Assembly (NCBI GenBank): GCA_017415515.1
Contig: JAFQGI010000012.1
Coordinates: 1 to 64,000, forward strand
Source of the DNA: Clostridia bacterium
GTDB lineage: Bacteria > Bacillota > Clostridia > Oscillospirales > Acutalibacteraceae
Direction: 5' to 3'
Length of the DNA: 64,000 bases
Part shown: positions 23,587-54,727 of the stretch, one piece after another
Layout of the letters: every line of letters begins with the position of its first letter
Numbering within the stretch: position 1 is the first letter of the stretch
Translations under genes and position numbers: made by a program
The notes under the pieces: generated by a model
Told to the model about the DNA's origin: nothing
Database searches by the model: none
Seen by the model: the letters and a program-made list of their open reading frames with translations, nothing else

Positions 23587-23662
23587 GTTCATTTTTGAAC
23601 AAGATAAATCGAAAATTTAACAAAAATAATCATTTTTTCTCTTGACATTGTTCATTTTTGAT
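23587..23662 (+). promoter_or_regulatory. Paired operator upstream of the binding-protein gene
   Basis: A perfect palindrome GTTCA-TTTT-TGAAC lies at 23587-23600. A second near-copy, GTTCATTTTTGAT, at 23650-23662 falls inside the promoter spacer. The two are 63 bp apart, six DNA turns, on the same helix face. This is the layout of a repressor that binds cooperatively. The regulator is not identified. Confidence 0.6.
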
Positions 23663-23670
23663 GCTATAAT
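23642..23670 (+). promoter_or_regulatory. Consensus promoter of the binding-protein gene
   Basis: TTGACA (23642-23647) and TATAAT (23665-23670) are spaced by exactly 17 bp, a perfect sigma-A-type match. The spacer holds one half of the operator pair. Confidence 0.85.
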
Positions 23671-23704
23671 CGCAACAAATAAACAAAAACGGAGGTTTTT
23701 GACG

Positions 23705-24706
23705 ATGAAAATGAAGAAATTACTTTCTTTGCTGTTGGTTTTGGCTCTGTGCCTGGGCGGTATGACCGCGCTGGCCGGTTGCAAAAAGGGCGAAAAAGTG
23801 GTGATCTATTCCAGTGACGAGGATTACATCAACGAGTATTTCCTGGGCCGCTTGAAGGAGAAATTCCCCAAGTATAACATCACCATTGAGTATCTTTCCA
23901 CCGGCAAGAACGCCGCCAAGCTGCAGAACGAGGGCAAAAACACCCCCTGCGACATCGTGTGGGGCTTGGAGGTTGGTTATCTGGACAACATGACCGATCT
24001 GCTGGCGGACATCAGCGATTACAGCAAGGATCACTACGTGGACGATATGAAGATGGGCGGCGACAAATATTTGGTCGCTCACCGTTACAGCGGCTGCATG
24101 GTGGTCAACACCCAGCTGTTGAAGGACAAGGGCTTGGATAAGCCCGCCTCCTACAAGGATCTGCTGGATTCCCAGTATAAGGGCTTGGTTTCCATGCCCG
24201 ACCCCAGCTCCTCCGGCACCGGCTATATCTTCCTGAAAAGCATGGTCAACGCCTGGGGCGAGGATGAGGCCTTCTCCTACTTCGAGGGCTTGAAGAAAAA
24301 CATCAAGGATTTCACCTCCTCCGGCTCCGGCCCCATCAACGATCTGCTGATGGGCGAGGTGGCTGTGGCGCTGGGCATGACCTCTCAGGCTGTGATGCAG
24401 ATCAACGAGGGTCAACCCTTGGAGATCATCTTTGACCAAGAGGTGGGCGCCCCCTACACCGCCTGCGGCTATGGCATTGTCAAGGGCAAAGAGGACAACA
24501 AGGCCGTGAAGGAGGTCTTCGACTTCTTCTACGAGGAGTTGGTGCAGGAGGAGAAGGACAAGTTCCTGCCCGAGACCATCTTTAAGGATCAGGTGATGAA
24601 GGTGGAGGGTTATCCCACCAACATTTCCTATGCCGATATGAAGAACAACACCGCCGACGAGAAAGAGCGTCTGCTGGGCATCTGGAACAAGAAGGGCATC
24701 AACTAA
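23705..24706 (+). CDS. ABC importer substrate-binding lipoprotein
   Basis: A 333-residue extracellular solute-binding protein. The signal peptide ends in lipobox ALAGC with lipidated C26. The mature part starts KVVIYSSDEDYINEY and has PDPSSSGTGY and TSSGSGP segments. This is the fold and motif style of the AfuA/FutA/PhnS group, which binds iron, small anions or aminoethylphosphonate. It probably feeds the permease/ATPase pair encoded at 30600-32986, which lacks its own binding protein. Expression is likely repressor-controlled through the paired operator. Substrate unknown. Confidence 0.85.
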   Translation: MKMKKLLSLLLVLALCLGGMTALAGCKKGEKVVIYSSDEDYINEYFLGRLKEKFPKYNITIEYLSTGKNAAKLQNEGKNTPCDIVWGLEVGYLDNMTDLLADISDYSKDHYVDDMKMGGDKYLVAHRYSGCMVVNTQLLKDKGLDKPASYKDLLDSQYKGLVSMPDPSSSGTGYIFLKSMVNAWGEDEAFSYFEGLKKNIKDFTSSGSGPINDLLMGEVAVALGMTSQAVMQINEGQPLEIIFDQEVGAPYTACGYGIVKGKEDNKAVKEVFDFFYEELVQEEKDKFLPETIFKDQVMKVEGYPTNISYADMKNNTADEKERLLGIWNKKGIN

Positions 24707-24754
24707 TCGGGGCAGAGAAACAAACCAGAACCCGCCCGAAAGCGAGAGTTTTCT

Positions 24755-25645
24755 ATGACGAGAAAAGAATTTGACGTGCTCACCTATTTGGAGCGCACCG
24801 CCGGCAAGCGGTCACAGCGAGCCATCGCCCAAGGCGTGGGCGTATCGGTGGGCACGGTGAATAAGATTTTGGCAACGCTCCACGCCGCCGAGTGGATCAC
24901 CCCGGAGCTGACGCTGACCGGCAAGGGATACGAGGTGTTGGAGCCCTATCGGGCACGGCGCATCGTCTTTTTGGCGGCGGGGTTGGGGTCGCGGCTGTTG
25001 CCCCTCACCCTCAACACCCCCAAGCCCCTCATTCGGGTGGGCGGCAAACGCATCCTGGACACCGCCATCGATGCGGCGCTGGCTGCCGGCATCGAGGAGA
25101 TCTACGTGGTGCGGGGGCATCTGTCGGAGCAGTTTGACCAACTGCTGAGCAAATATCCCCAAATTCGTTTTTTGGAGAACCCGGCCTATAACGAAACCAA
25201 CAACATCTCCTCCGCCATGTGTGCCCGTTTTCTGCTGAAAAACGCCTATGTGATGGAGGCGGATCTGGTGGTGAACAACCCTGCTGTGATCCGCAAATAC
25301 CACTACACCTCCAACTGCTTGGGTGTGCCGGTGGACAAGACGGACGACTGGTGCGTGACGGGGCAAAACGGCATCGCCACCGGCTTGCAGCTGGGCGGCA
25401 TCAACTGCCACCACCTGTTCTCGGTCTATTATTGGAACGCGGAGGACGGCAACAAACTGCAACGCCACATCGAAGAGGTGTACCAAAGCCCCGGCGGAAA
25501 AGAGCGCTTTTGGGATCTGGTGCCGCTGATGTACTACCAAAAGGAGTACCAGGTGGAGATCACCCCCTGCTGTATGGAGGACATCACCGAGATCGACACC
25601 CTGCGGGAATTGCAGGCGGCAGACCGCGCCTATTCCTTGTTATAA
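24755..25645 (+). CDS. LicC-like nucleotidyltransferase fused to a winged helix
   Basis: A 296-residue fusion. Residues 1-65 look like a MarR/Crp-type winged helix-turn-helix (RSQRAIAQGVGVSVGTVNKI). From about 70 it is a nucleotidyltransferase with the signature FLAAGLGSRLLPLT...PKPL at 72-92, in the LicC/PntC-like subfamily that makes CDP-choline or CMP-aminoethylphosphonate. ETNNISSAMCA and the C-terminal DITEIDT metal motif are present. It follows the binding-protein gene by 48 bp on the same strand and is a paralogue of the protein at 29668-30585. The wing may link activated-substrate level to transcription; that is inference. Confidence 0.85.
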   Translation: MTRKEFDVLTYLERTAGKRSQRAIAQGVGVSVGTVNKILATLHAAEWITPELTLTGKGYEVLEPYRARRIVFLAAGLGSRLLPLTLNTPKPLIRVGGKRILDTAIDAALAAGIEEIYVVRGHLSEQFDQLLSKYPQIRFLENPAYNETNNISSAMCARFLLKNAYVMEADLVVNNPAVIRKYHYTSNCLGVPVDKTDDWCVTGQNGIATGLQLGGINCHHLFSVYYWNAEDGNKLQRHIEEVYQSPGGKERFWDLVPLMYYQKEYQVEITPCCMEDITEIDTLRELQAADRAYSLL

Positions 25646-25649
25646 CGAG

Positions 25650-25690
25650 AAAAGCCTATGCAACCGATGGTTGCATAGGCTTTTTTCTTT
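25650..25690. terminator. Terminator between convergent units
   Basis: AAGCCTATGCAACC and its complement form a stem, followed by TTTTTTCTTTT on the plus strand. It separates the importer/nucleotidyltransferase unit from the end of the LicD operon. Confidence 0.88.
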
Positions 25691-26622
25691 TATTCCGCTT
25701 TTTGTTCTGCGGCGGCAGCGGCCTCTTTGGCGGCGGCCTCCGCCACGAGGGCGTCCTTGGCGGCCTCCAAAACGGCGGCGGCGGCAGCCTCCTCCTCCGC
25801 TTTCTTGGCGGCGGCGGCAGCGGCCTTGGCCTCGCGCCACGCCTCGGCGGCGGCGAGGATCTCCTCTTCGCTCTCCGGGAGAATTTTAGTGGCCATAAAC
25901 TGCTCGTAGGCGTCGCACAGGGTGGTGACGTCCGAGCCGAAGGCCACCTGCTTGCCGTGGTCCAGCCACAGGATCTTGTTGCACATATCCCGCACCTGAC
26001 CCACCGAGTGGGACACCAGAATGCCGGTGACACCGCTTCGCAGGATCTCCTGCATCTTGTCGTAACTCTTCTTACGGAAGGCGCCGTCACCCACCGACAG
26101 CACCTCGTCCAGGATGATGATATCGGGGTTGACAAGACAGGCGATGGAGAAAGCCAGTCGAGATTTCATACCGCTGGAAAGCTGTTTGAAGGGGCGATCC
26201 TGGAAATCCTGCAACTCGGCAAATTCAATGATCTTGTCGTACATATCGTCCATGAATTTGCGGGTATAGCCCAGCAGAGCACCGCGGAGATAGGTGTTCT
26301 CACGCACCGTCAGGTCGCCGTCGAAGCCGCTGGTCAGTTCCAACAGGGCGGCGATGGTGCCGCGGGTGCGCACCTTACCCTCGGTGGGGATCATGATGCC
26401 GCTGATGGCTTTGAGAAGGGTGGATTTGCCGGCACCGTTGGTGCCGATGATGCCCATCATGTCGCCCTTTTCCAGCGAGAAGGTGACGTCACGGTCGGCC
26501 CAAAACTCATTGACGGTGTATTTGCCCTGCAAGCGGCGCAGGATGTATTCTTTCAGACCGATGTTCTTAAAGTCACCGGTGATATAGCGGATGGATACGC
26601 CTTTTGCATCAATAATTTTCAT
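25690..26622 (-). CDS. TagH-like polysaccharide/teichoic acid exporter ATPase
   Basis: A 310-residue ABC ATPase of the TagH/RfbE/Wzt group. Walker A GTNGAGKST is at 60-68, the signature SSGMKSRLAFS near 150 and Walker B IIILDEVLSVGD near 168. After residue 240 there is no carbohydrate-binding domain. Instead a roughly 65-residue tail of almost only Ala, Glu and Lys occurs, probably a long charged helix. Partner of the permease at 26641, 18 bp upstream. Together they should flip an undecaprenyl-linked glycopolymer to the cell surface. Last gene of the LicD operon. Confidence 0.9.
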   Translation of the reverse strand: MKIIDAKGVSIRYITGDFKNIGLKEYILRRLQGKYTVNEFWADRDVTFSLEKGDMMGIIGTNGAGKSTLLKAISGIMIPTEGKVRTRGTIAALLELTSGFDGDLTVRENTYLRGALLGYTRKFMDDMYDKIIEFAELQDFQDRPFKQLSSGMKSRLAFSIACLVNPDIIILDEVLSVGDGAFRKKSYDKMQEILRSGVTGILVSHSVGQVRDMCNKILWLDHGKQVAFGSDVTTLCDAYEQFMATKILPESEEEILAAAEAWREAKAAAAAAKKAEEEAAAAAVLEAAKDALVAEAAAKEAAAAAEQKAE

Positions 26623-26640
26623 AGCTGCGCTCCTTTCCGC

Positions 26641-27417
26641 TTAGACGTAATAGAGGAATTTGTGGTTGCACTTTTTGTAGATCAAAGCGCCGATGCCCAC
26701 CATCAGCACCGCCCACGCCAACATCAGCATATGGTACTGGAAGGAGGGGATGTTGCCGTCCAGGGTGACCACACGCACGTATTTGATGGACAGATAGACG
26801 GGGTTGATCAAGAAAATGCGCTGGATGCTCTCGGGATAGGACTCCACGCGATAGAAGATGGCGGAGCAGTAGTGGAGCAACAGTGTGAACACGTCATAGA
26901 GATATTTGGTGTCGCGGAAGAAAATGTACATTGCCGACAGAATCAGACCCACGCCCACGTTGAACACGATGAGATACAGGATGGGATACAGCAGCATGAT
27001 AAACTTCCACGTGAAGGTGACGCCGTCCAGGGCGGCAAAGAGGAAGAAAACGATCAGTGTCAGGCCGAAGTTGATGACGGCAGACACATTTTTACTTAAT
27101 AGGAATAGATATTTGGGAACGTTGATTTTGGTGAAGATGGAGGCGTTGCTGGTGAGGGCGTTCATGCCGCCCTTGGTGGCCTCCTTAAAGAAGGAGAAGA
27201 AGACCGTACCGGCAAACAGATAGGTGGTGTAGTGGTCCATACCGCGACCGAAGAACTGGGTAAAGACCAGGCGCAGCACCAGCAGGTTGAGCAAAGGGGA
27301 GAGCACGCTCCACGCCATGCCGATGACGGTTCCTTTGTATTTTTGTTTAAAATCACGCTTAACCAATTCCTCAAAAAGGAAGAGGTGTTTGGAAAATTTA
27401 TGAAACATTACACGCAA
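26641..27417 (-). CDS. TagG-like ABC-2 exporter permease
   Basis: A 258-residue ABC-2 membrane permease with six hydrophobic segments. The N-terminal motif LVKRDFKQKYKGTVIGMAWSV is the hallmark of TagG/RfbD/KpsM-type polysaccharide exporters. It pairs with the downstream ATPase to export teichoic acid or another glycopolymer. Its start overlaps the end of the 445-residue LicD gene by ten bases. The link to five LicD proteins implies the exported polymer carries a phosphodiester- or phosphonate-linked substituent. Confidence 0.92.
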   Translation of the reverse strand: MRVMFHKFSKHLFLFEELVKRDFKQKYKGTVIGMAWSVLSPLLNLLVLRLVFTQFFGRGMDHYTTYLFAGTVFFSFFKEATKGGMNALTSNASIFTKINVPKYLFLLSKNVSAVINFGLTLIVFFLFAALDGVTFTWKFIMLLYPILYLIVFNVGVGLILSAMYIFFRDTKYLYDVFTLLLHYCSAIFYRVESYPESIQRIFLINPVYLSIKYVRVVTLDGNIPSFQYHMLMLAWAVLMVGIGALIYKKCNHKFLYYV

Positions 27418-28745
27418 TCCTCCATATCGGCGATGTTAAAGCGGGCGGCGTGACGGTGGGTGCGATTCCAGGGTAGGGGCTGGGTCATATAGTCACCGTA
27501 CATGTGGGTCAGATATTCGTCGGTGCAGCCCATCACCGGCACCTCAATGCCGGCAAAGTTCATACGCACCGTCTTTTTTACCCATTCGGTTCTTGCCGTT
27601 TCTTTACGGCGGGAATAGATGCTGTACATATTGACGTAGTAGGGGGCATGCTTATGCATATAGCGGCGGTCGTGACGGTCGGCGCAACGCATAATGCGCT
27701 CGTCGCTGAGGAAAAAGGCGATAAACTGCGCCAGCTTCTTCATACGGAAATCCTCGTCGTTGTAGTGACCGATCTTGACATAGTGCAGCTTGCGCCAGAA
27801 TTTGCCGAAGAACCAGGACATTTTGGCGCGGAAATTATCTTCGGGAACGGGAATGAGGGGGAACAGATCGATGCAGCAGCGGTCGTTGCAGCAGATCTTG
27901 GTGAACATACGGGGGTAGTAGACGTCTGCCTGTCGGCAGAACAACTGGAATTTCTTGGGCAGATGCTCTTTGATCTTCTCCTCAAACTCGGGCAGGTCCT
28001 CGATGCAGATGCCCACGTCGATGTCGTCGTCCCAGGGGATGAAACCGCCGTGACGCACGGCGCCCAGCACGCTGCCCGCCAGCAGGCGGTATTTGAGATT
28101 GTAGGTTTGGCTCAGCTCCTCCAAGAATTGCAGAGCTTCGATGCAGTTTTGCTGATGCTCCAACAGCTCGGCCTTTCCTTCACGGGTCAGGTTGCAGCCC
28201 ATGGGATCCTCAAAGCAGTTTTCATAGTCCAAAAAACGCTCTTCCAGATACTCGCGGTAGTTGGCGAAGGTGGGGTAGTCCACACCGTTGAGGGTGACGA
28301 ACTCGGCCGGTTCGGGATAGGGGATGGGGTGGTCGGCGGCGTCCTTGCCCTGACCGTGGGTGGCACGCAGACGGGCATCCGTCTTTGCTTCTTCGGGGCT
28401 GCAAGGGCGCAACAGGCCAAAGCGGATCACCACGTTCTCCAAATTGTGGGGATGGGTACAGGTGACGGACAGGCCGTTATAGGACATCAGGCAGTTGGTG
28501 CGGTCCTGAAAGCGGGGCAATACCTGGGTCATCACCCGGTTGCGATCCACCGCGTGGATGGCGATGGTCCACTCCTTATAATTCTCGGGGGTGTGCCCGA
28601 TGGTGGCGGCGCAGAGCAGAGAGGTGTCATAGAGATACCAGCTCACGCCGAATTCTTTTGCGGCCTTGGTCCATTCTGCCGCAAAATAATCCACGGTGGC
28701 GGCAGTGGTGACGGGTCCCTTTGCCTTGTGTGTCGTCTTTTGCAT
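27408..28745 (-). CDS. LicD-family protein with degenerate N-terminal duplicate
   Basis: A 445-residue protein. The C-terminal part carries an intact LicD catalytic core GSVLGAVRHGGFIPWDDDID near 227-247, the site that transfers a phosphoryl-alcohol from a CDP carrier to a glycan. The N-terminal part (about 25-160) resembles a second LicD unit whose motif has decayed: DTSLLCAATIGH keeps the SLL but loses the RH and WDDD residues. Such a core-plus-relic layout is uncommon. It lies 65 bp after the 278-residue LicD gene in the operon. The start ATG has a weak AAGGAAGG-like site. Confidence 0.88.
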   Translation of the reverse strand: MQKTTHKAKGPVTTAATVDYFAAEWTKAAKEFGVSWYLYDTSLLCAATIGHTPENYKEWTIAIHAVDRNRVMTQVLPRFQDRTNCLMSYNGLSVTCTHPHNLENVVIRFGLLRPCSPEEAKTDARLRATHGQGKDAADHPIPYPEPAEFVTLNGVDYPTFANYREYLEERFLDYENCFEDPMGCNLTREGKAELLEHQQNCIEALQFLEELSQTYNLKYRLLAGSVLGAVRHGGFIPWDDDIDVGICIEDLPEFEEKIKEHLPKKFQLFCRQADVYYPRMFTKICCNDRCCIDLFPLIPVPEDNFRAKMSWFFGKFWRKLHYVKIGHYNDEDFRMKKLAQFIAFFLSDERIMRCADRHDRRYMHKHAPYYVNMYSIYSRRKETARTEWVKKTVRMNFAGIEVPVMGCTDEYLTHMYGDYMTQPLPWNRTHRHAARFNIADMEDCV

Positions 28746-28810
28746 AAGCGCCTTCCTTTCTCTGTTTTGTGGTGGTTGAATACCCGTTTGGCAGCGGTTT
28801 ACGGCTGGCT

Positions 28811-29647
28811 TTACGGGTTGGTGGCGGCGGCTTCGGAGGTGACCGGCTTCAGATTGTGGCCGATGCGCTTTTCCGGAGGGGGCGGGGTCATATAGTCGCC
28901 GTATAGGGAGGAGAGCATCTCCTCACATCGTTCCGGCAACAGCCAGCGACGACCGGCAAAATCTACCTCTTTTCCACTGCCGTAATAGGCGGTGGGGAAG
29001 ATGGTGCGCCCCTTGTACAGGCTGCCCAGCGAAATGGTCCAGCCGGTTTTTTCCGCATCGTACTTTTGGACGACCTTTTCCATGCGGGCCAGTCGCTTGC
29101 GGGGGTCGACGCGGAAGGTTTTGGCCCACAGATTGCCCACGGCGATGGCGGTTTTGCGAATGTTCCGATGCTTGCCCTTGTTGTTGATGCACTCGTCGGC
29201 ATCCGCCAGCTGGGCCAGCACCCGCAGATACAGCAGTCGATACAGATGGCATCGGCGGGCAAATTTGCCCTTAGGCATACCGTCGATGGGGAACAGGTCG
29301 ATCCACATGTGGCGCACAAAGGGCACCACAAAATTATCCTCGCACACGGGGGTGTCCAACCGCTCCACCTGCGCAAAATAGCGGGGGTGGTGGGTGGCGT
29401 CGGGATAGTGCACTAAGCGGTATCCCTCCGGCAATTCTTCCCGCAAAATGGGGAGCAAGCGGTTGTAGTCGGCTCGGGGAATGGCCAGGTCGATGTCTTC
29501 ATCCCAGGGGATGAAGCCGCCGTGGCGCACCGCCCCCAGCATGGTGCCCTCCGCCAGATAATAGCGGATGCCGTGCTTTTCGCACAGACCGATGACCACC
29601 GTGGCCAAGTCTAACGTGACAGCTTGCAAATCTTCAATAAAGCCCAT
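28811..29647 (-). CDS. licD: LicD-family phosphotransferase (single-domain)
   Basis: A 278-residue protein of standard LicD length with the core GTMLGAVRHGGFIPWDEDIDL at 34-54. LicD enzymes attach phosphocholine or a related head group to cell-surface sugars from a nucleotide-activated donor. The conserved DLFPIDG follows further on. It directly follows the winged-helix nucleotidyltransferase gene (20 bp), the expected donor-maker. This is the most typical LicD of the five in the operon. Confidence 0.92.
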   Translation of the reverse strand: MGFIEDLQAVTLDLATVVIGLCEKHGIRYYLAEGTMLGAVRHGGFIPWDEDIDLAIPRADYNRLLPILREELPEGYRLVHYPDATHHPRYFAQVERLDTPVCEDNFVVPFVRHMWIDLFPIDGMPKGKFARRCHLYRLLYLRVLAQLADADECINNKGKHRNIRKTAIAVGNLWAKTFRVDPRKRLARMEKVVQKYDAEKTGWTISLGSLYKGRTIFPTAYYGSGKEVDFAGRRWLLPERCEEMLSSLYGDYMTPPPPEKRIGHNLKPVTSEAAATNP

Positions 29648-29667
29648 AGGGGGTCACCTGCCTTTCG

Positions 29668-30585
29668 TCAGCGCACGATGCCCTGGGGGGTGATGGCGTA
29701 GTCGGGGTCGATGAGGGACAGCTCGTGGTAGGTGTCGATCTCGGTGATGTCCTCAAAGGTGCACTCGGAGATCTCAATGTGATAGTGGCTGTTGTAGATG
29801 TTCATAGGGGCAATATCCCAGAAGTTCTGCTTGCCCTCGGGGGTGGAGTACATATCCTCCAGGTCGGCGGGCAGCTTGGCGCCGTCCTCCTCGTTCCAGT
29901 AATAGATGGAATAGAGGTGGTGGCAGTTTTCACCGCCCTGCACCAGACGCTTGGCCACGCCGTTTTCGCTGATGACGCACCAGTCGGTGGTCTTCTTCAC
30001 CGGCACACCCACGCAGTTGGAGGTGTAGTTGTATTTACGGAACACGTCGGGGTTGTTGATGAGCAGATCCGCCTCCATCACGTAAGCGTGCTGGAACAGA
30101 TGGCGCACCTGCATGGCGGAGGACACGTTGTTGGTCTGGGTATAGACGGTGTTGTCAATGAGATGAATCTGAGGATACATCTGCTTGAGCTGGTCAAAGG
30201 CGCCGCCCAGATAGCCGCGAACGATGTAGATCTCCTCAATGCCCTTCGCTAACGCCGCCTCGATGGCGGAGCAGATGATGGGCTTGCCGTGAACCCGCAC
30301 CAAGGGCTTGGGCACGTTGAGGGTGGCGGGACGCAGACGGGAGCCCAGTCCGGCGGCCAAAAAGATGACACGGCGGGCACGATAGGGCTCCAACGCTTCG
30401 TAGCCGGCCTCGGTGACCGCAAACAGATCGGCCAAATAGCCCAACTCAGCCAGTTCTTTCAGCAAGGCGTCGGTGTCGGCCAAAGACATGCCGATGTTGT
30501 CGGCCACGGTGGCGACGGTGTTCTCGGATTTGGCTTGCGCCAAAAAGGACAGAGCTTTAAACTGCTCTCGGGTCAGATGATTCAT
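29668..30585 (-). CDS. LicC-like nucleotidyltransferase fused to a winged helix (second copy)
   Basis: A 305-residue protein with the same layout as the one at 24755. A winged helix-turn-helix covers 1-65 and the nucleotidyltransferase core starts near 71 with FLAAGLGSRLRPAT...VPKP at 76-94. EIYIVRGYLG, QTNNVSSAMQV and a terminal DITEIDTYHEL are shared with the paralogue. Predicted to make a CDP- or CMP-linked head group for the LicD proteins. AGGAGG precedes the start. It sits between the importer permease gene and a LicD gene, tying uptake, activation and transfer together. Confidence 0.87.
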   Translation of the reverse strand: MNHLTREQFKALSFLAQAKSENTVATVADNIGMSLADTDALLKELAELGYLADLFAVTEAGYEALEPYRARRVIFLAAGLGSRLRPATLNVPKPLVRVHGKPIICSAIEAALAKGIEEIYIVRGYLGGAFDQLKQMYPQIHLIDNTVYTQTNNVSSAMQVRHLFQHAYVMEADLLINNPDVFRKYNYTSNCVGVPVKKTTDWCVISENGVAKRLVQGGENCHHLYSIYYWNEEDGAKLPADLEDMYSTPEGKQNFWDIAPMNIYNSHYHIEISECTFEDITEIDTYHELSLIDPDYAITPQGIVR

Positions 30586-30599
30586 AGGGATTGCCTCCT

Positions 30600-32195
30600 T
30601 TAAGCGGCGGTTTTAACAGGTTTGTTTTTCTTCAACGCTTTTTTGAGAATATAGAAGGTGGTTTTGACGATCAGGTTGACAACCAGAATGATCAAGGACA
30701 CAAAGGCGGCGCAGCCCATCAAGCTGTTGGCCTCGAAGGTGTTGATCATCAGCGCAATCTGACGGGTGTCGATGTTGGCCAGGAAGGAAACGGCGGAAAT
30801 GGTCATCATGGAGTTGACAAAGAAATAGGAAAGCATCTCCACCAGGGTGCCGCGGGTTTGGGGGATCAGAACGTCCCGCAGAATACGGGGACGGCTGATG
30901 TTCAGGGTGGCGCCCACATCCTCCAAGCTCTTGTTGATGATGTTGAAGGAGTTGTAGATCATCAGATACGGGGAGGCAAAGAAGTGGATGGTGTTAACAA
31001 ACACCAGGATCGCCAGCGTGCCGTAGAGGGCACTGCCGGAGAAGAAGATGGTGTAGGAAAGACCCAGCACCAGGCCGGGGATGGCCATCGAGGTGATGGA
31101 CATCAGGTGCAAAGCGCGGGAGAACAGTCCGGTGGTACGGGCGGTGCAATAGGCGCACAGATAGGCGATGGCCGTGCCGATGACCGACACCAACGCGGAA
31201 ACGATCAAGGAGTTGATGAGGAACACGTCGCCGCCCTGATCGATGGTTTTGATGATGTGGTCGGTGGTGAAGCTCAGGTCATAGGGGTAGTTCTGCATCA
31301 CCGACAGCATGGCAAAGGCCACGATGGGGAACAGCACCACCACGCACATAACGATGCACACGGCATAGCACAGCAGGTCGCGCACCACGCCCTTGCGGGG
31401 CTTGATGGCTTTGTTGACAAAGCCGGAGCGGGACTGCTCTTTTTTCAGCAGGTCGATGACAAAGGCGGCCACCGCCGGCAACAGCAGGATGGCGCCGTAG
31501 ATGCTCAATTTGCCGCTTTGGCTGTTGAGCTCAAACTCTTTGAGCAGGCTGACCGGCAGGGTGGTGTAGGTGCCGCCGATGGCGGTGGGCACACCATAGT
31601 CGGTGACCACCATGGTAAACACGGAGAACACCACCGAAATCAAGGATTTGCTCAGATAGGGGAGGGTGATGCCGGTGAATTGGCGGAACTTGTTGATGCC
31701 CAGCACGCTGGCGGCCTCATAGGGGGAGGCGTCCTCGTAGCTCAGCACGTCGGACAGCATCAGAAAGGCGATGGGGAAGGAATACATCACCGAGCCCATC
31801 ACGATGCCGGTGAGGCCGTAGATGCCCTCGGTCAGCCCCAACCACTTGGTCAGGATGCCGTTGTTGCCCAGCAGCATCTTGAGACCCCAACCGTGGGAGA
31901 TGGAGGGGATGAGCATAGGCAGCGTCAGCACGATCTTAAACATATTTTTCAGCCGAATGTTGCTGCGAGCCAAGCAAAAGGACAGCAGCAGAGCCAAACT
32001 CACCGAAACGAGGGTGGAAAGGGTGGATGCCGTCAGCGAATTGCGGATGGACTCGCTGAATTTAGGCTGTTGAAGGAGCTCCTGCCAGCTTGCGGCATCG
32101 ATGTTGGCCAGCACCTGAATCAGGGGCAGGATCACGCACACGATGAAGAAGACCGACAGCAGGATTTTCAGATAATTGGATTTGTCGCGGATCAT
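30600..32195 (-). CDS. ABC importer permease, two fused membrane domains
   Basis: A 531-residue permease with about twelve membrane segments. The two halves each hold an EAA-type ATPase-docking loop: EAASVLGINKFRQFTGITLP near 180 and EDVGATLNISRPRILRDVLIP near 440. This is the single-chain FbpB/PhnV-like architecture used for iron, thiamine or aminoethylphosphonate uptake. It pairs with the upstream ATPase gene, overlapped by four bases, and presumably with the binding protein at 23705. Placing an importer within an export/decoration operon suggests it supplies the head group. Confidence 0.9.
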   Translation of the reverse strand: MIRDKSNYLKILLSVFFIVCVILPLIQVLANIDAASWQELLQQPKFSESIRNSLTASTLSTLVSVSLALLLSFCLARSNIRLKNMFKIVLTLPMLIPSISHGWGLKMLLGNNGILTKWLGLTEGIYGLTGIVMGSVMYSFPIAFLMLSDVLSYEDASPYEAASVLGINKFRQFTGITLPYLSKSLISVVFSVFTMVVTDYGVPTAIGGTYTTLPVSLLKEFELNSQSGKLSIYGAILLLPAVAAFVIDLLKKEQSRSGFVNKAIKPRKGVVRDLLCYAVCIVMCVVVLFPIVAFAMLSVMQNYPYDLSFTTDHIIKTIDQGGDVFLINSLIVSALVSVIGTAIAYLCAYCTARTTGLFSRALHLMSITSMAIPGLVLGLSYTIFFSGSALYGTLAILVFVNTIHFFASPYLMIYNSFNIINKSLEDVGATLNISRPRILRDVLIPQTRGTLVEMLSYFFVNSMMTISAVSFLANIDTRQIALMINTFEANSLMGCAAFVSLIILVVNLIVKTTFYILKKALKKNKPVKTAA

Positions 32196-32986
32196 TGAGC
32201 CGATTCATCCCCTTTCACACACACAGTGGAAAAGCGGCTCAGGGAATCGATTTTGAGTTGCAGATTATGTACCACGAAACGACGGACATAGTCGTTGGCG
32301 GGATTTTTGATGATGTTTTCGGGGGTGTCGATCTGGTGGATGACGCCGTTGTCCATCACCATAATGCGATCGGACATGGCGAAGGCCTCCTCCTGATCGT
32401 GGGTGATATAGATCATGGTGGTGCCGAATCGCTTTTGCAGGGCTTTCAGCTCGTCACGCAGGATCATACGGGTGTCCACGTCCAGCGCCGACATGGGCTC
32501 GTCGAACAGGATGACGTCAGGATTCAGCGCCAGGGTGCGGGCGATGGCCACGCGCTGCTGCTGACCGCCGGAGAGGCGGCTGGGCTTTTTCTTGGCGTGA
32601 GCCTCCAGGCCCACCGCTTTGAGCATCTCCATGGCAATCTCGCGGGATTGGGCCTTGCGGTTTTTGTCCAGACGCAGGGCGTATTCCACGTTTTTCAGCA
32701 CCGTCATGTTTTCAAACAAGGCGTAGTTTTGGAACACGATGCCCATGCCGCGCTTGGAGGGGGCGGCCTTGGTGATGTCCACGCCGTCCTTGATCACGGT
32801 GCCGCCGGTGGGGTTCAGCAGGCCGATGAGAACACGCAAAATGGTGGTCTTGCCGCAACCGGAGGGGCCGAGGATGGAAAGAAACTCGCCGTCCTTGACA
32901 TCAAAATTGATGTTTTCGAGGATGGTCTTGCGACCCAGCACGACCTTCAGGTCGTTGACAACGATCTTGGTGTTTTGATTTTCCAT
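32192..32986 (-). CDS. ABC importer ATPase (PotA/FbpC type)
   Basis: A 264-residue ATPase with Walker A GPSGCGKTT (40-48), Q-loop VFQNYALF, signature LSGGQQQRVAIARTLA near 138 and Walker B VILFDEPMSALD near 160. The short C-terminus lacks a full TOBE regulatory domain. It overlaps the permease gene by four bases (ATGA) and follows the 530-residue LicD gene by ten. It energises uptake of the unidentified solute. Confidence 0.93.
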   Translation of the reverse strand: MENQNTKIVVNDLKVVLGRKTILENINFDVKDGEFLSILGPSGCGKTTILRVLIGLLNPTGGTVIKDGVDITKAAPSKRGMGIVFQNYALFENMTVLKNVEYALRLDKNRKAQSREIAMEMLKAVGLEAHAKKKPSRLSGGQQQRVAIARTLALNPDVILFDEPMSALDVDTRMILRDELKALQKRFGTTMIYITHDQEEAFAMSDRIMVMDNGVIHQIDTPENIIKNPANDYVRRFVVHNLQLKIDSLSRFSTVCVKGDESAQ

Positions 32987-32996
32987 GTGAAAAACC

Positions 32997-34589
32997 TCAC
33001 TTTCTGTCCTGCGCGGCCTGCATGGCGGCGGCAGGCAGCTCCATCATAATCAGTCCGTTGCGGGTGACGGCGGCACAGCGGGTGTACCATTCCATCCCTT
33101 CGGCGGTGTGGCCGAGGGCGGTGTGCAGCCGACCCAACAGGAACATCAATTTGTCGTTTTCGGGATACCGGGCCAACAAGGCCTTGGCAGAGGTCAACAG
33201 CACAGCGGCATCGTCGCCGTTGCGCAAGCCCTGCTCGATGCGGAAGGTGGCCATGTTGAGCTGTAAGGGGTAAGCTTGTGCCCAACGGTCGGCCAGAGCG
33301 GCGGCGTCTTCGTAGCGCTCTTCTTCGCAGGCAAGAATGCATCCGCGGATGTCGGTGATAAAGCGCTCCATCTGCTCGATGTGCTCGGTATAGACCTCTT
33401 TGTTGTGTTTATGGAAACCAATGAGGTGCTCTGCCTCCCAATACCGTCCCACCATCACCAAGGCCACGACAGTGGCGTACAGCACCTCTTTGCTGACCGT
33501 GATAGTTAAGTTGTTTTCGGCGATCTCATCGGAAAGCTGGGCGGTGTAATAAGGCTTTAACAAATCGGCCAGCTCTTGGTGGCGGTTTTCCATCAGCAAG
33601 GCCTGTGCCTCGGTGGAAAGGCTGTCGGTCACGGGCGCCAGCACCACCTCGTAAAGGATCTTAGTCATAAGCGCCTTTTCCCTACGCAGACGGCGGGTAT
33701 AATCCAGCTTGCGGATGTTCTGCTTTTTGCGAGCGATATAGGTTTGGCGCAGATCCTCAAAATTGATGAAGGGCGTGTAATCGGCGATGAAATCCCGGTT
33801 GGGGGTGTGATAGCAATCGAAGGTGTCGTGATCCTCCTGTTGGGAGGCGGTGGGCACCATCATCCAGGTGTCGCCGAATTCGGCACGCAAAAAGCGATGG
33901 TAGTATTGGGGCGCGGGATACATCCCGCCCTCAAACTCCACCTCGACGGGCGTGCCGAAGATGGATTTGTCAAAAAAGCGGTGTTTGTTGCCCCAACGCA
34001 GATAATAGGTTTGGCAATCCTCGTTATCCTCGTAGGCATACAGCTTTTTGCGCAGGGTGTTCAGCACGTGCTCTCTGCCTTGGACCTTCATCAAACGGCG
34101 GTAGAAATTGTACTCCTCCCGATGGTCGATGATGTCCTCGCACATCACGTAGACGGGGGTCATCAATTCAGAATAGATGGTGGCCAGCGTCTTATACTCC
34201 TCTAACTCTTTTGGGTTGGAGGGGGCAGGATCCAGAATGAACAGGTCGATGTGCTGACCGGCGGCCAGACCGTCGAGAATGTGGTTGCGGAACAGCACGG
34301 TGGAGGTCAAATTGGTATACTTCACCGTTTCGCGCAGGTATTCCGGATACCGTTCGTAGCAATACAGCTCACGCCCCGCAGGCAGATCCTGATCGATGAC
34401 TGTCAACAGCTTTTTAAATTCGGAACGGGTGATACACAAATCGATATCGTCGTCCCAAGGTAAAAAGCCCTTGTGCCGCACAGCACCCAGCAGCGATCCG
34501 CCCTCCAGGAAGTAGGTGATGTTATTCTTTTTGCAAATGCTGTCAAATTCTTTCAGCAGGGTCAAAAGACCGATTTGCTCATCTAACAT
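32997..34589 (-). CDS. LicD-family protein with helical C-terminal extension
   Basis: A 530-residue protein. The N-terminal LicD core is intact: GGSLLGAVRHKGFLPWDDDID at 30-50, then HIDLFILDP near 115. From about 300 on there is a long helical region with TPR-like repeats, including LGRLHTALGHTAEGMEWYTRC near 485. The final segment AAVTRNGLIMMEL closely parallels the end of the 529-residue paralogue. The extension may organise a complex with the exporter; that is inference. The start overlaps the degenerate LicD gene by 11 bases. Confidence 0.88.
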   Translation of the reverse strand: MLDEQIGLLTLLKEFDSICKKNNITYFLEGGSLLGAVRHKGFLPWDDDIDLCITRSEFKKLLTVIDQDLPAGRELYCYERYPEYLRETVKYTNLTSTVLFRNHILDGLAAGQHIDLFILDPAPSNPKELEEYKTLATIYSELMTPVYVMCEDIIDHREEYNFYRRLMKVQGREHVLNTLRKKLYAYEDNEDCQTYYLRWGNKHRFFDKSIFGTPVEVEFEGGMYPAPQYYHRFLRAEFGDTWMMVPTASQQEDHDTFDCYHTPNRDFIADYTPFINFEDLRQTYIARKKQNIRKLDYTRRLRREKALMTKILYEVVLAPVTDSLSTEAQALLMENRHQELADLLKPYYTAQLSDEIAENNLTITVSKEVLYATVVALVMVGRYWEAEHLIGFHKHNKEVYTEHIEQMERFITDIRGCILACEEERYEDAAALADRWAQAYPLQLNMATFRIEQGLRNGDDAAVLLTSAKALLARYPENDKLMFLLGRLHTALGHTAEGMEWYTRCAAVTRNGLIMMELPAAAMQAAQDRK

Positions 34590-35802
34590 GTTCTACGGGC
34601 TCCCCTTTGTAATCAGTAATGACTATGGGCTTCCAATGCTCCTCGGGCACCATAGCACGTAATTTGCGGACGTAGGTTTTGCTGCCTTCCCGCAGCAGGA
34701 TATCCATGGTCATCTCGAAGATGTCCTTGTCAAAGCATAGGCCCAGCTTCTTTTTGTAGCAGGCCCACAGGGCGGAGCGATAGGGCTTAAGCAGCTCGTT
34801 GAGCTCGTCCCAGCGCTCTTCCTTGTGAAGCTGCACCAGCTGCTCCTTCATCGGCATATACTTTTCGTACATGGCAAAGCGGCGCTGGGTGCGATCCACA
34901 ATGGCGTAGTAGCCGTTAATCTTGTGATTGTAGAGAGAAACCTTGGCTTGGATGAGATCCAGCTTGATTTTCTGTTTCTGAATGGCCTTGTAGTTGATTT
35001 GATCCTTAGCCCGCAGGATGTACTCGCGGTAGGAAACGTTAGCCGACACCAGCAGGGCGGAGGAGGCTACCAGATATTCCGGTTTGCAGGTCTGCCAGTT
35101 TTTGCCGTATTCCTTGAGGAAATAGGTTTCGGGATCGGCAAAAGTGGAGAAGGTGTGGCCTTCCAGAGTGACGGTGCTCACGGCGTCCAGCAAGGCGTTG
35201 GGGAAGGTATAGCGACCGGCGCAGATGGAAACGTTCTGATCGTTCTTGTTGCGGTGGAGATTGACCCACAGCTTGAACAATGCGCGGCTGAACAGGCGGC
35301 CGCCCAGGATGTTCTTGCCCAGGTGGCAAGCGATGACGGCGGCACGGCGCCCAAAGCCGGCAACCGTGACGGTGGGTCTTACGCAAGCCTTCCACAGGGT
35401 GCGGGTGCGGCGATAGACCTTGACCGCTTTGCCGGATTTGAAGCGAATCATATGGATGGTGACGGCGATGTTCGGCAGGTAGGAAGCGTTGTTGAAGGGC
35501 AACATCATCATCAAGGTGTTGGTGTCGCCGTAACGCAGGGTGAAATCGGGGTAATTCTTGTTGCTGTACATGGAATCGATGGACCGATCGGCGCGATTCT
35601 CCTTGTTCACCGCTTTGATGAAGCGCAGGGCATCGGCGGTGGTCATGGCCACGTTTGCCTCGCAACAAGAGGGGAAGAAGCCCTCTTTGGTATAGGCGGA
35701 CAACGCCGTCTCTTTGCACAGATAGTATTGGATTCCCTCACGCTGACAGATGGCATCCAGGTCGGTCAGCAGGGTGAGCAATTTTTGCTGCACATCAGTC
35801 AT
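34579..35802 (-). CDS. Catalytically degenerate LicD-like protein
   Basis: A 407-residue protein aligned over its first 60 residues with its operon neighbours: MTDVQQKLLTLLTDLDAICQ matches the start of the active LicD proteins. At the active site the pattern GG, RH and PWDDD is replaced: C29-K30 for GG, T38-K39 for RH and PSCCE (44-48) for PWDDD. All metal-binding aspartates are lost, so it is probably a pseudoenzyme. The reading frame is intact, arguing for a kept structural or regulatory role. The ATG at 35802 has GGAGGG upstream and overlaps the preceding gene by eight bases. Confidence 0.8.
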   Translation of the reverse strand: MTDVQQKLLTLLTDLDAICQREGIQYYLCKETALSAYTKEGFFPSCCEANVAMTTADALRFIKAVNKENRADRSIDSMYSNKNYPDFTLRYGDTNTLMMMLPFNNASYLPNIAVTIHMIRFKSGKAVKVYRRTRTLWKACVRPTVTVAGFGRRAAVIACHLGKNILGGRLFSRALFKLWVNLHRNKNDQNVSICAGRYTFPNALLDAVSTVTLEGHTFSTFADPETYFLKEYGKNWQTCKPEYLVASSALLVSANVSYREYILRAKDQINYKAIQKQKIKLDLIQAKVSLYNHKINGYYAIVDRTQRRFAMYEKYMPMKEQLVQLHKEERWDELNELLKPYRSALWACYKKKLGLCFDKDIFEMTMDILLREGSKTYVRKLRAMVPEEHWKPIVITDYKGEPVEHVR

Positions 35803-37384
35803 GGTTAATCCCTCCTTGGTTCTTCTCACTCAAATACATCAAAATCACGCCGTTGCTGGTGGCAGAGGCCGTCTGATACAGGGCGGCGGCTTCGTCGGTG
35901 TGGCCGCAGCGCTCCAGCACCCGCCCCGCCCAGAAGGCCACCTCGGTATCGGTGGGGAAGGCGGCGACGGCGTGTCTGGCGGTGGCCTCGTCGGTGTCGG
36001 CGGCGTCGGAAAGCAGGATATACTGCAATTCGCAACGCAGCAGATTCAGATGGTCGGGGTAGGCGGTCAGAGCCGCCGTCAATTTGGGGGCCATCTCGTT
36101 CAGCGGCTCCACGTCCCCTTCGTCCACGTAGCGGTCCTCAAAATACCGCACCAGCGAACGGATGGTGGTGAAGCACGCGTTGGCCGCGTTCAGCTCGTCG
36201 GTCATCGCCCCTTGCTTGGCGCGGGCGGCCAGCAGCTTGCCGGCGCGGGCAAATTCGCCCTGTTTGAGCAGAGCCCGCAGAATCAGCGCTACGGTGTTGT
36301 CCGGCAGGCGGACGTAAATGTCGTTTTTGAGATAGGGGCCGCTGATCTGGGTGCGCAGATAATTGTCCACGCGGGTCAGCAGTTCGGGGGCGCTGAGCGC
36401 CGCCAGCGCCTCGTAGCTCAACTTGGGATCCGCCTGAAACTCCAACTCGGTGAGCAGGGCGGTCTGCAGATAGCCGGTCACCTGCACGTCGTGGGCGGGG
36501 ATGGCTTTTTGCACGTTCCATTCTTTGCGGGCGACAAAGTCGGCCAACGCCTTTTCGCTGTCGATGGCGGGGCGAATGTCCCGCAGCCAGTTGACATACG
36601 GCATGGTGGGGCTCATGTTGGAGGTGTGGGTCTCCCGATTGGCCTCGTCCGGCAGATAGATCCAGTTGTCGCCATAGGTGGCACGCAGGAAATCCACCGT
36701 CTTTTCGGGGCAGGGGAGGCTGTAACCGCAGAAATCCATATAACGGGGGGTGCCCATCAGGTCGCGGTCATAGATCAGCAGCTGCTGACCCCAACGATAG
36801 AGGTATTGGTTGCTCTCGGCAGGCTCCGCCTCGAACAGGCGGTGGTAGAGGTCGGCCATGACCTTTTCCTTGCCGACACGCTTAATCTCCGCTTCGTATT
36901 GGCGGTAGAGGTCCACGTATTTCCACAGACGCTCGTTCACCATAAAGAAGGGGGTGAGCAATTCGTTGTATACCACCCACTCGGCGATGTGCCGTTCTTT
37001 GGCTTCGGGGTCGGCGGGTAGCGGGTCGAGGATCATAATATCCAGCGAAATGCCGCAACCGGTATAGTCCAACACCTGAGAGCGGAAGAACTGGGAAGTG
37101 TTCTTGTTCATATATTTGATGGTGATCTTGGTGTGACAGGGGGTGTTGATCATGGTGATGATCTCGCGGTCATCCCGCATTTCGGTTTCGCACACCTTGC
37201 AGAATTGACGGAAGGCGTCGCGGGTCATCATGATGTCCACGTCGTCGTCCCACGGGATGAAGCCCTTGTGACGCACGGCACCCAACACCGAGCCTCCGGT
37301 GAGATAATAGGTGATGTTATGTTTTTTGCAGATCTCGTCGATTTCCAAGACCAGCTCCAGCATACGGGATTGTAACGGAGTCAA
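35795..37384 (-). CDS. LicD-family protein with helical C-terminal extension, first gene of the operon
   Basis: A 529-residue protein with an intact core GGSVLGAVRHKGFIPWDDDVD at 30-50 and ISLDIMILDP further on. The C-terminal 230 residues are helical with TPR-like units such as WAGRVLERCGHTDEAAALYQTA near 490, ending ATSNGVILMYL, like the 530-residue paralogue. The start is placed at TTG 37384, with AGAGG eight bases upstream and a good alignment to its paralogues. The upstream ATG at 37456 lies at the predicted transcription start and cannot have a ribosome binding site. Confidence 0.85.
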   Translation of the reverse strand: MTPLQSRMLELVLEIDEICKKHNITYYLTGGSVLGAVRHKGFIPWDDDVDIMMTRDAFRQFCKVCETEMRDDREIITMINTPCHTKITIKYMNKNTSQFFRSQVLDYTGCGISLDIMILDPLPADPEAKERHIAEWVVYNELLTPFFMVNERLWKYVDLYRQYEAEIKRVGKEKVMADLYHRLFEAEPAESNQYLYRWGQQLLIYDRDLMGTPRYMDFCGYSLPCPEKTVDFLRATYGDNWIYLPDEANRETHTSNMSPTMPYVNWLRDIRPAIDSEKALADFVARKEWNVQKAIPAHDVQVTGYLQTALLTELEFQADPKLSYEALAALSAPELLTRVDNYLRTQISGPYLKNDIYVRLPDNTVALILRALLKQGEFARAGKLLAARAKQGAMTDELNAANACFTTIRSLVRYFEDRYVDEGDVEPLNEMAPKLTAALTAYPDHLNLLRCELQYILLSDAADTDEATARHAVAAFPTDTEVAFWAGRVLERCGHTDEAAALYQTASATSNGVILMYLSEKNQGGINHD

Positions 37385-37465: not shown

Positions 37466-37494
37466 TATTATAATATATAATTCCTATATTGTCA
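37466..37494 (-). promoter_or_regulatory. Consensus promoter of the LicD operon
   Basis: On the minus strand TTGACA (37489-37494) and TATAAT (37466-37471) are spaced by exactly 17 bp. It should drive the ten genes down to 25690. The AT-rich surroundings lack a clear operator. Confidence 0.85.
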
Positions 37495-37795
37495 AGGAGA
37501 AGGAGGCTTTTGTGTCGAAACAGAGAAAATCTATTGGTAAAAGCGACAGAAAAATAGGGGGTAAATTTGTCATATATCACAAAGGCTTGTTGGGCGATTT
37601 GACAAGCCGAAGACCGTAAACGAGCTGCGTTTTTTGAATTGAAAATAGTATAAAAAAGTCAAATGTGACGGATTTTTTTCGCAAAAAAACAGCAGTAATA
37701 TATGAAAAATATACAGAAAAGGGCTATGCAAACAAAAAAAGGCAGTGTATAATTACAATGTAGGCAAAATATACAAAAAAAGAGAGGTTTTGCGA
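37495..37795. other. AT-rich divergent intergenic region
   Basis: About 300 bp between the LicD operon promoter and the sugar-metabolism genes. It is markedly AT-rich, with no open frame having a ribosome binding site. A -10 TATAAT at 37748-37753 with only a weak -35 (TATGCA, 37725-37730) probably serves the plus-strand cluster, which would suit an AraC-activated promoter. Near-repeats ATATACAGAAAAG (about 37710) and ATATACAAAAAAAG (about 37769) are seen. Confidence 0.5.
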
Positions 37796-42715: not shown

Positions 42716-42760
42716 TCCATCCCTGCGGGGATGAAAATAAAGAAAGAAAGGGCGGTAAGG

Positions 42761-44731: not shown

Positions 44732-44750
44732 GGAAAGGAGAGTGGCATTT

Positions 44751-54665: not shown

Positions 54666-54727
54666 ATATGTAATAATGAGTTCTTATGTGCCTATTACAT
54701 AATTCCGCAAAGAAAAGAGGTCTCGTG

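What the first reader, a model, noticed from the sequence alone, without database searches (positions are those of the whole stretch)
23705..37384. Large import-activate-transfer-export locus built around five LicD proteins
Seen: two linked units, convergent on a terminator, hold a binding protein, a fused-domain permease and ATPase (importer), two LicC-like nucleotidyltransferases, five LicD-family proteins and a TagGH-type exporter. Known: LicC/LicD pairs add phosphocholine to surface glycans, and LicC relatives of the PntC type make CMP-aminoethylphosphonate. Inference: the cell imports a phospho- or phosphono-head group, activates it and puts it on an exported teichoic-acid-like polymer. 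Missing are glycosyltransferases, a LicA choline kinase and LicB, which argues against the classical choline route and for an imported, already phosphorylated compound. The combination is not one I know as a described system.
Basis: partly seen in the sequence, partly recalled or inferred. Interest (0 to 1): 0.75.

Follow-up and report, generated by a model that had tools for sequence, protein, structure and literature searches.

The report
Imported-phosphonate surface-decoration locus with self-regulating enzyme
A ruminant-gut bacterium carries a gene cluster that appears to import a ready-made phosphonate (probably 2-aminoethylphosphonate), activate it with an enzyme that also looks like a gene switch, and attach it to its surface, instead of making the phosphonate itself.

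Summary
Two convergent units, each behind a 12-of-12 consensus promoter, share a 19-pair terminator. Four of the five LicD proteins keep the LicD motif; LicD4 has lost it. All three importer subunits score best against the putative 2-aminoethylphosphonate (AEP) family PhnS2/U2/T2, but below its curated cut-offs.

The conserved core is not "five LicDs" but importer plus winged-helix LicC-like nucleotidyltransferase (wHTH-NTP), found together in 14 genomes; six of these have no LicD match. The same wHTH-NTP group lies beside AEP-synthesis genes in six other genomes, and the two contexts are mixed in its tree. Supply therefore looks interchangeable: make AEP or import it. No carrier has an AEP transaminase or phosphonatase over cut-off.

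New here: an inverted repeat, GTTCA-N25/26-TGAAC, lies at the start of wHTH-NTP units of importer, AEP and choline type (19 sites in 1.08 Mb, about 2 expected). The window holds only a weaker copy, over its importer promoter. I propose that the wHTH-NTP is both enzyme and repressor, as BirA is for biotin. Substrate, regulator and transfer step are inferred, not shown.

The parts
23642..23670 (+). sigma-70 promoter of the importer/NTP1 unit (TTGACA-17-TATAAT, TG before the -10)
   Evidence: 12 of 12 consensus match
23650..23684 (+). candidate operator GTTCA-N25-TAAAC over spacer, -10 and start region; weak variant of GTTCA-N25/26-TGAAC
   Evidence: only match to the loose pattern on either strand of the 64-kb window; strict form found at relatives' units
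23705..24706 (+). lipoprotein-type substrate-binding protein, PhnS2-like
   Evidence: TIGR03261 8.3e-52, 176 bits, cut-off 393; PF13343 6.5e-17; best solved relative AfuA-type 4r72 8.7e-26 (the name AfuA is recalled)
24755..25645 (+). wHTH-NTP1: winged-helix domain + LicC/PntC-like nucleotidyltransferase; proposed enzyme and repressor
   Evidence: LicC 1jyk 3.1e-22, PntC 6pd1 2.7e-16; MarR_2/HTH_24; keeps SVGTVNK motif
25647..25687 (.). terminator stem between the convergent units
   Evidence: 19-pair stem with T tail on +
25690..26622 (-). TagH-like exporter ATPase
   Evidence: NF010065 1.4e-58, below cut-off
26641..27417 (-). TagG/Wzm-like exporter permease
   Evidence: PF01061 2.9e-10; NF050109 1.5e-16, below cut-off
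27408..28745 (-). LicD1: intact C-terminal LicD domain with an N-terminal domain that may be a decayed relative
   Evidence: PF04991 1.5e-29 at 214-417; motif check
28811..29647 (-). LicD2
   Evidence: PF04991 5e-40
29668..30585 (-). wHTH-NTP2: second nucleotidyltransferase; helix motif lost (SLADTDA), likely enzyme only
   Evidence: 53% identical to NTP1; motif
30600..32195 (-). importer permease, two fused domains, PhnU2-like
   Evidence: TIGR03262 1.5e-111, 374 bits, cut-off 593
32192..32986 (-). importer ATPase, PhnT2-like
   Evidence: TIGR03265 9.9e-93, 311 bits, cut-off 458
32997..34589 (-). LicD3 with long C-terminal extension
   Evidence: PF04991 4.5e-35
34579..35829 (-). LicD4, degenerate LicD without the acidic motif
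   Evidence: PF04991 0.0011, below gathering; motif lost here and in L013
35795..37384 (-). LicD5 with long C-terminal extension (TTG start near 37384 assumed; longest ORF to 37456)
   Evidence: PF04991 4.6e-34; start chosen by the promoter position
37467..37495 (-). sigma-70 promoter of the LicD5-to-TagH unit
   Evidence: 12 of 12 consensus match

Best explanation
A surface-tailoring locus fed by import. A PhnSTU2-type ABC transporter takes up a ready-made aminophosphonate, most likely 2-aminoethylphosphonate. The two wHTH-nucleotidyltransferases couple it to CMP. LicD-family transferases move the phosphonyl group onto a surface glycan or polymer, part of which the TagGH-like pair exports. 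NTP1 also represses its own importer operon through its winged helix at an inverted-repeat operator over the promoter, probably with substrate or CMP-product as the signal (BirA-like logic). Shown: genes, promoters, terminator, conserved core, AEP context of sister NTPs, and the motif with its link to wHTH-NTP units. Inferred: the substrate, CMP activation, transfer, acceptor, and which protein binds the motif and with what effect.
For: Importer: all three subunits best match PhnS2/U2/T2. Linkage: all 7 non-own genomes with binding-protein matches under 1e-100 among 295 order genomes carry the wHTH-NTP in the same unit; 14 carrier genomes in all. AEP: among 18 non-own genomes with NTP matches at E<=1e-100, 9 are beside the importer, 6 beside AEP-synthesis genes, 3 beside neither, 0 beside choline kinase. 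PEP mutase, phosphonopyruvate decarboxylase and AEP aminotransferase of G437 are over curated cut-offs. Importer-linked G138 falls among AEP-linked NTPs (97/83) and AEP-linked G763 outside that group. The same Glyphos_transf and YidC-sulfatase genes flank importer units (G138, G109) and AEP clusters (G437, G1008). In G221 a strict operator also lies 91 bp before a run of six same-strand genes that ends in PEP mutase and a decarboxylase-type TPP enzyme. 0 of 14 carriers have an AEP transaminase or phosphonatase over cut-off; 9 of 12 tested have no PEP mutase match. Operator.
Against: All importer scores are below curated cut-offs. Solved relatives of the binding protein include AfuA (sugar-phosphate binder, recalled) and a pyridoxal-phosphate binder. 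The pocket is mixed: LicC position 105 is Glu, as in PntC, in 17 of 17 importer-linked NTPs but also in 3 of 8 choline-kinase-linked ones; position 192 is Asp, as in LicC, in 16 of 17, while 5 of 6 AEP-linked NTPs have Glu. A larger head group is therefore possible. AEP clusters also hold a second cytidylyltransferase domain fused to PEP mutase, so the wHTH-NTP need not be the AEP enzyme there. The NTP group has only moderate support (91/93, 96/72), and holding importer- and AEP-linked rows alone together is rejected (p-AU 0.0189). Three carriers do have PEP mutase. Six carriers have no LicD match. The window's operator copy is imperfect, its LicD5 promoter has none, and carrier G019 has none.
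Confidence: 0.6

Rival explanations
1. The importer takes up phosphocholine (or phosphoethanolamine), the NTPs make CDP-choline, and LicDs add phosphocholine: a Lic pathway that skips the choline kinase.
For: Nearest solved relative of NTP1 is LicC; W136 and W191 and Asp192 of LicC are kept in nearly all importer-linked NTPs; LicD is the phosphocholine transferase family; related wHTH-NTPs are fused to choline kinases in other genomes.
Against: None of the 18 closest NTP genomes has a choline kinase beside the NTP, and 6 have AEP-synthesis genes there. The importer's best families are AEP, not choline, families. Rice et al. report that an AEP-preferring PntC also keeps the aromatic box (PMC6697681, passages).
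Confidence: 0.2
2. The importer feeds phosphonate catabolism (P or N source) and merely sits beside surface genes.
For: Characterised AEP importers serve catabolism (PMC8316502, passages).
Against: No PhnW/AepZ or phosphonatase over cut-off in any of 14 carriers; binding protein and an NTP share one unit in all 14. C-P lyase was not tested.
Confidence: 0.07
3. The imported compound is another organophosphate or sugar phosphate, turned into a nucleotide sugar and built into a polymer.
For: Binding protein resembles AfuA and a pyridoxal-phosphate binder; the NTP domain also hits sugar-1-phosphate nucleotidyltransferase families weakly; five LicD-type proteins and an exporter suggest a polymer.
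Against: NTPs are far closer to LicC/PntC and to AEP-cluster members; PhnU2 is the permease's best family by a wide margin.
Confidence: 0.13
4. The GTTCA-N25/26-TGAAC sites belong to a separate regulator and the winged helix of the NTP has another role.
For: No binding data; three loci whose NTPs lack the preset helix motif still have a site, and 8 of 21 loci with the motif have no strict site; the Fisher test is modest (13 of 21 against 3 of 15, p 0.019); one site (L065) is in a locus without a wHTH-NTP.
Against: Sites track wHTH-NTP units across choline, AEP and import types, and the 4 fetched importer loci without an NTP have no paired site, though G016 has two half-sites. Among the recurring neighbour families that I annotated none is another regulator; not every family was annotated.
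Confidence: 0.35

Closest known systems
Pnt phosphonyl-tailoring pathway (PntC; Rice et al. 2019, PMC6697681)
   Same: LicC-like cytidylyltransferase, proposed CMP-AEP donor, surface tailoring; sister NTPs sit in PEP-mutase clusters
   Different: No PEP mutase match in the own or congener genome, both incomplete; supply by an ABC importer; winged helix on the enzyme; operator
Lic-1 phosphocholine pathway (LicABCD)
   Same: LicC-like activation and LicD-type transfer
   Different: No choline kinase match in the own genome; importer is an ABC transporter of AEP type; two NTPs and five LicD-type proteins
PhnS2/T2/U2 and AepSTU-type AEP importers (TIGR03261/03265/03262; PMC8316502)
   Same: Binding protein, fused-domain permease and ATPase of that kind are the best matches
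   Different: All scores below curated cut-offs; linked to activation and transfer rather than to PhnWX breakdown
BirA and NadR enzyme-regulators (recalled)
   Same: DNA-binding domain fused to an enzyme that activates the small molecule with a nucleotide; far-spaced inverted-repeat operator at its own promoter
   Different: Different fold and substrate; regulation here is predicted only

Membership tests
Pnt phosphonyl-tailoring pathway | LicC-like nucleotidyltransferase of the AEP-linked group | tested here: met
   Importer- and AEP-linked NTPs share one group without the 8 choline-kinase-linked rows of the tree, support 91/93
Pnt phosphonyl-tailoring pathway | PEP mutase in the cluster or genome | tested here: not met
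   No TIGR02320 match in G000 or G008; both MAGs are 66-68% complete
Pnt phosphonyl-tailoring pathway | Enzyme prefers AEP to phosphocholine | not testable with these tools
   Pocket residues mixed
Lic-1 phosphocholine pathway | LicD-family transferase | tested here: met
   Four of five over the Pfam gathering score
Lic-1 phosphocholine pathway | LicA choline kinase | tested here: not met
   No PF01633 match in G000; genome incomplete
Lic-1 phosphocholine pathway | LicB choline permease | not tested
   No search made
PhnS2/T2/U2 AEP importer (NCBIfam equivalogs) | Scores over curated cut-offs | tested here: not met
   S 176/393, U 374/593, T 311/458 bits
PhnWX AEP catabolism | AEP transaminase and phosphonatase | tested here: not met
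   None over cut-off in 14 carriers
TagGH teichoic-acid exporter (NCBIfam equivalogs) | TagH over curated cut-off | tested here: not met
   198.9 of 538 and 189.3 of 320 bits
BirA-like enzyme-repressor | Fused DNA-binding and nucleotidyl-activating domains | tested here: met
   Pfam HTH and NTP domains in one protein
BirA-like enzyme-repressor | Inverted-repeat operator at its own promoter | tested here: inconclusive
   Strict sites at relatives' units; in the window only a weak copy
BirA-like enzyme-repressor | Binds that operator, controlled by substrate or product | not testable with these tools
   Needs DNA-binding assay

The most novel reading that the evidence does not exclude
A family of enzyme-repressors governs bacterial head-group decoration. 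A cytidylyltransferase with its own winged helix binds GTTCA-N25/26-TGAAC and senses head-group supply through its own reaction, as BirA does for biotin. The same switch is used for choline, for home-made AEP and, here, for AEP scavenged from the gut (for example from ciliates). Gut bacteria would thus wear phosphonates that they did not make.
Probability: 0.4. Interest if true: 0.82.

Novelty: new variant of a known kind. Interest (0 to 1): 0.66.

Why it matters
If right, surveys that count phosphonate-decorated bacteria by PEP mutase alone miss bacteria that scavenge the phosphonate. It would offer one explanation for the remark that AEP is an unreliable marker of rumen protozoa because it is also present in bacteria (PMC4659874, passage). 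The operator makes regulation of Lic/Pnt surface tailoring directly testable, and gives a handle for finding its regulon in other genomes.

Tried and rejected
LicD as the organising element: rejected, since 6 of 14 carriers (G189, G212, G138, G190, G221, G149) have no LicD match at E<=0.001; G109's only match is a 35-position fragment. Glu at LicC position 105 as an AEP signature: looked clean in the first set, then failed when choline-kinase-linked G520, G522 and G342 were added; dropped as a decisive marker. A clade test of importer- plus AEP-linked NTPs alone was rejected (p-AU 0.0189); three unclassified NTPs lie inside that group, which would account for it. Rows left out: the tree omits the four LicC-like rows (G212, G230, G315, G301) that were in the tree, and the NTP domains fused to choline kinase were aligned but never put in a tree. 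Those four rows have Ser or Cys at 105 and Glu at 192. Iron or thiamine importer: those families score far below PhnS2. Operator in the window's LicD5 promoter: none with up to two mismatches. Operator control: the 17 control loci (302,576 bases, 0 strict hits) leave out L065, which also has no wHTH-NTP gene but has one site, before the PEP-mutase run. Reversed sequences of the same 59 stretches give 1 strict and 6 loose hits, against 19 and 26. Upstream regions of 193 other genes of the same loci give 2 loose hits: the LicD5 unit of G700, and the divergent side of the G221 site. The motif was first seen by eye in many of the regions that searches then tested, so those shuffles are partly circular; the spacing peak, conserved flanks and choline-type loci are the more independent support. 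The helix motif S[LVAI][GA][TSA][VI]N[KRQ] was fixed before counting but after the alignments had been seen. Literature searches listed no paper that describes this importer-wHTH-NTP pairing or this operator; they cover open-licence PMC papers only, and most listed papers were seen as listing alone.

Not done for lack of tools or quota: structure prediction and fold search, operator scan of whole genomes, C-P lyase search, empty-site comparison. G700 and G402 were not searched for PEP mutase or choline kinase families.
Full report
OBSERVATION. The window lies on contig C7 (66,001 bases) of a 1.5-Mb MAG, 68% complete. The two named genomes found to hold the binding protein are MAGs from sheep rectum and yak cecum, so a ruminant-gut Clostridia/Oscillospiraceae origin is likely. 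Two units converge: binding protein and wHTH-NTP1 on +; LicD5-LicD4-LicD3-ATPase-permease-NTP2-LicD2-LicD1-TagG-TagH on -. Each has a 12-of-12 sigma-70 promoter in front and they meet at a 19-pair terminator stem. LicD4 has lost the PWDDDID motif, here and in L013.

IMPORTER. NCBIfam places binding protein, permease and ATPase best in PhnS2, PhnU2 and PhnT2, "putative 2-aminoethylphosphonate ABC transporter" (176, 374 and 311 bits; cut-offs 393, 593 and 458). They are relatives, not certified members. The best solved relatives of the binding protein are 4r72 (AfuA, name recalled) and its kind and a pyridoxal-phosphate binder, with a putative AEP-binding protein weaker. AepX and AepS, reported as AEP importer proteins, belong to the same Pfam family PF13343 (PMC8316502, passages).

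CONSERVED CORE. In 295 genomes of the order, 7 besides the own one have binding-protein matches under 1e-100, and all 7 carry the wHTH-NTP in the same unit. With G008, L013/G700, G019, G021, G402, G109 (contig ends inside the binding protein, so its permease and ATPase are unseen) and the own genome this makes 14 carriers. One more, G016, has the importer without an NTP in the fetched stretch. Among 9 other genomes of the genus, 66-94% complete, only G008 has the binding protein, so the locus is patchy. LicD matches are absent from 6 of the 14 carriers and present in 8, one of these (G109) a fragment; LicD genes lie within or near the core in G000, G008, G700, G021 and G402. In 4 of the 6 carriers without LicD (G189, G212, G138, G221) a CDP-glycerol-glycerophosphotransferase-like protein (Glyphos_transf) is a neighbour, shown by profile for G189 and G138 and by BLAST for the others.

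WHICH HEAD GROUP. The wHTH-NTP profile gives 18 non-own genomes at E<=1e-100 in three scans of 295, 391 and 398 genomes that share some genomes. Context: importer 9 (G189, G212, G138, G127, G190, G221, G149, G109, G402), AEP-synthesis genes 6 (G326, G410, G437, G559, G763, G1008), neither 3 (G290, G079, G544), choline kinase 0. Of the six, G410, G437, G763 and G1008 have AEP aminotransferase, PEP mutase and phosphonopyruvate decarboxylase together; G559 has aminotransferase and decarboxylase there, and G326's contig ends in PEP mutase. In G437 all three are over their curated cut-offs, and the PEP mutase is fused to a second cytidylyltransferase domain. G290 has AEP genes on another contig. 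In the tree, importer- and AEP-linked NTPs are mixed (G138 among the AEP-linked ones, 97/83) in a group of 26 rows with moderate support (91/93), with the 8 choline-kinase-linked rows outside. Two accessory genes, Glyphos_transf and a YidC-sulfatase fusion, flank both importer units (G138, G109) and AEP clusters (G437, G1008). So the enzyme and its surroundings stay while the supply changes. Carriers with PEP mutase over cut-off: 3 of 12 tested (G127, G221, G109). Carriers with AEP transaminase or phosphonatase over cut-off: 0 of 14. Carriers with choline kinase over cut-off: 1 of 12 tested, G212, on another contig.

POCKET RESIDUES. Rice et al. (PMC6697681; passages; outline and abstract) name Glu104 and Glu196 of PntC against Asp105 and Asp192 of LicC, and say that an AEP-preferring PntC keeps LicC's aromatic box. 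Here position 105 is Glu in 17 of 17 importer-linked, 6 of 6 AEP-linked, 3 of 8 choline-kinase-linked and 3 of 6 other NTPs; position 192 is Asp in 16 of 17 importer-linked (Gly in one), Glu in 5 of 6 AEP-linked, and Asp in 6 of 8 choline-kinase-linked. This does not settle the substrate, and position 192 leaves room for something larger than AEP.

OPERATOR. Upstream regions of the units share a motif. TGAACA is the most enriched 6-mer in 26 upstream regions (30 against 4.3 +/- 2.1 in shuffles). GTTCA and TGAAC 29-32 bases apart stand upstream of 9 of 23 units; shuffles of 21 of them average 0.03, at most 1, in 500 rounds. Over 59 sequences (1,077,389 bases) GTTCA-N-TGAAC occurs 11 times at N=25 and 8 times at N=26, against 32 times over the other 33 spacings from 10 to 44 (at most 3 each); reversed sequences give 1. 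All 19 sites lie at or within about 240 bases of starts of relevant units: 11 at importer/NTP units, 1 at the LicD5 unit of L013, 1 at the AEP aminotransferase start of G1008, 5 at units with a wHTH-NTP-choline-kinase fusion, and 1 before a run of overlapping genes in G221 that ends in PEP mutase and a TPP decarboxylase-type enzyme. Flanks are conserved too: pyrimidine before GTTCA in 37 of 38 half-sites, then an A/T-rich stretch. Seventeen loci without a wHTH-NTP (302,576 bases) have none (one further such locus, L065, is the G221 case). By carrier: strict site in 10 of 14 (in G700 at the LicD5 unit, not at the binding-protein unit), a variant in G000, G008 and G138, none in G019. Sites are commoner where the winged helix keeps the motif S[LVAI][GA][TSA][VI]N[KRQ]: 13 of 21 loci against 3 of 15, p 0.019. 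The window has only GTTCA-N25-TAAAC, at 23650-23684, spanning spacer and -10; G008 has the same variant.

MECHANISM. Most likely: AEP import, CMP activation, LicD transfer, with NTP1 repressing its own unit when head group or its CMP form is plentiful. NTP2 has lost the helix motif and is probably enzyme only. The BirA comparison is from recall. AEP (ciliatine) is among sheep-rumen metabolites (PMC11839056, passage), and its use as a protozoal marker was questioned because it is also present in bacteria and feed (PMC4659874, passage). AEP on a gut Bacteroides capsule is described (PMC12413058, passage). A survey of phosphocholine pathways, PMC10434233, was seen in passages.

VERDICT. A real, conserved pairing of importer and activating enzyme that my paper searches did not find described, with a candidate operator that ties it to both Pnt and Lic pathways. 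New variant of a known kind; substrate and regulation await the bench.

Noticed in passing
L024:12019-14142, L025:4944-7103, L027:6577-8676, L029:6515-8611: YidC-type insertase domain fused to a CDP-glycerol-glycerophosphotransferase-like domain; Pfam and NCBIfam show it for the L024 protein (TIGR03592 105 bits over cut-off 84), the other three by BLAST homology.
   Followed up: partly
L026:5296-8049, L032:4280-7078, L055:5623-8361, L070:3222-5972: YidC-type domain fused to a sulfatase/LtaS-like domain; shown by profile for the L055 protein, the others by BLAST homology.
   Followed up: partly
L014:9784-12944: Four genes without Pfam match inserted between NTP1 and TagH in the congener G008.
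   Followed up: partly
window 27408-28745: LicD1 has an extra N-terminal domain with a LicD-like stretch in the alignment but without the acidic motif and without a BLAST match to other LicDs.
   Followed up: partly
window 48056-50311 and 54686-56068: Two dockerin-bearing open frames, one with an endonuclease I domain.
   Followed up: no
window 42731-47441: Two large neighbouring proteins with carbohydrate-binding CBM_4_9 domains.
   Followed up: no
L037:2798, L039:10027, L048:191, L058:5783, L059:7594: The same operator stands at units with a wHTH-NTP-choline-kinase fusion, so choline tailoring in these Clostridia may share the switch.
   Followed up: partly
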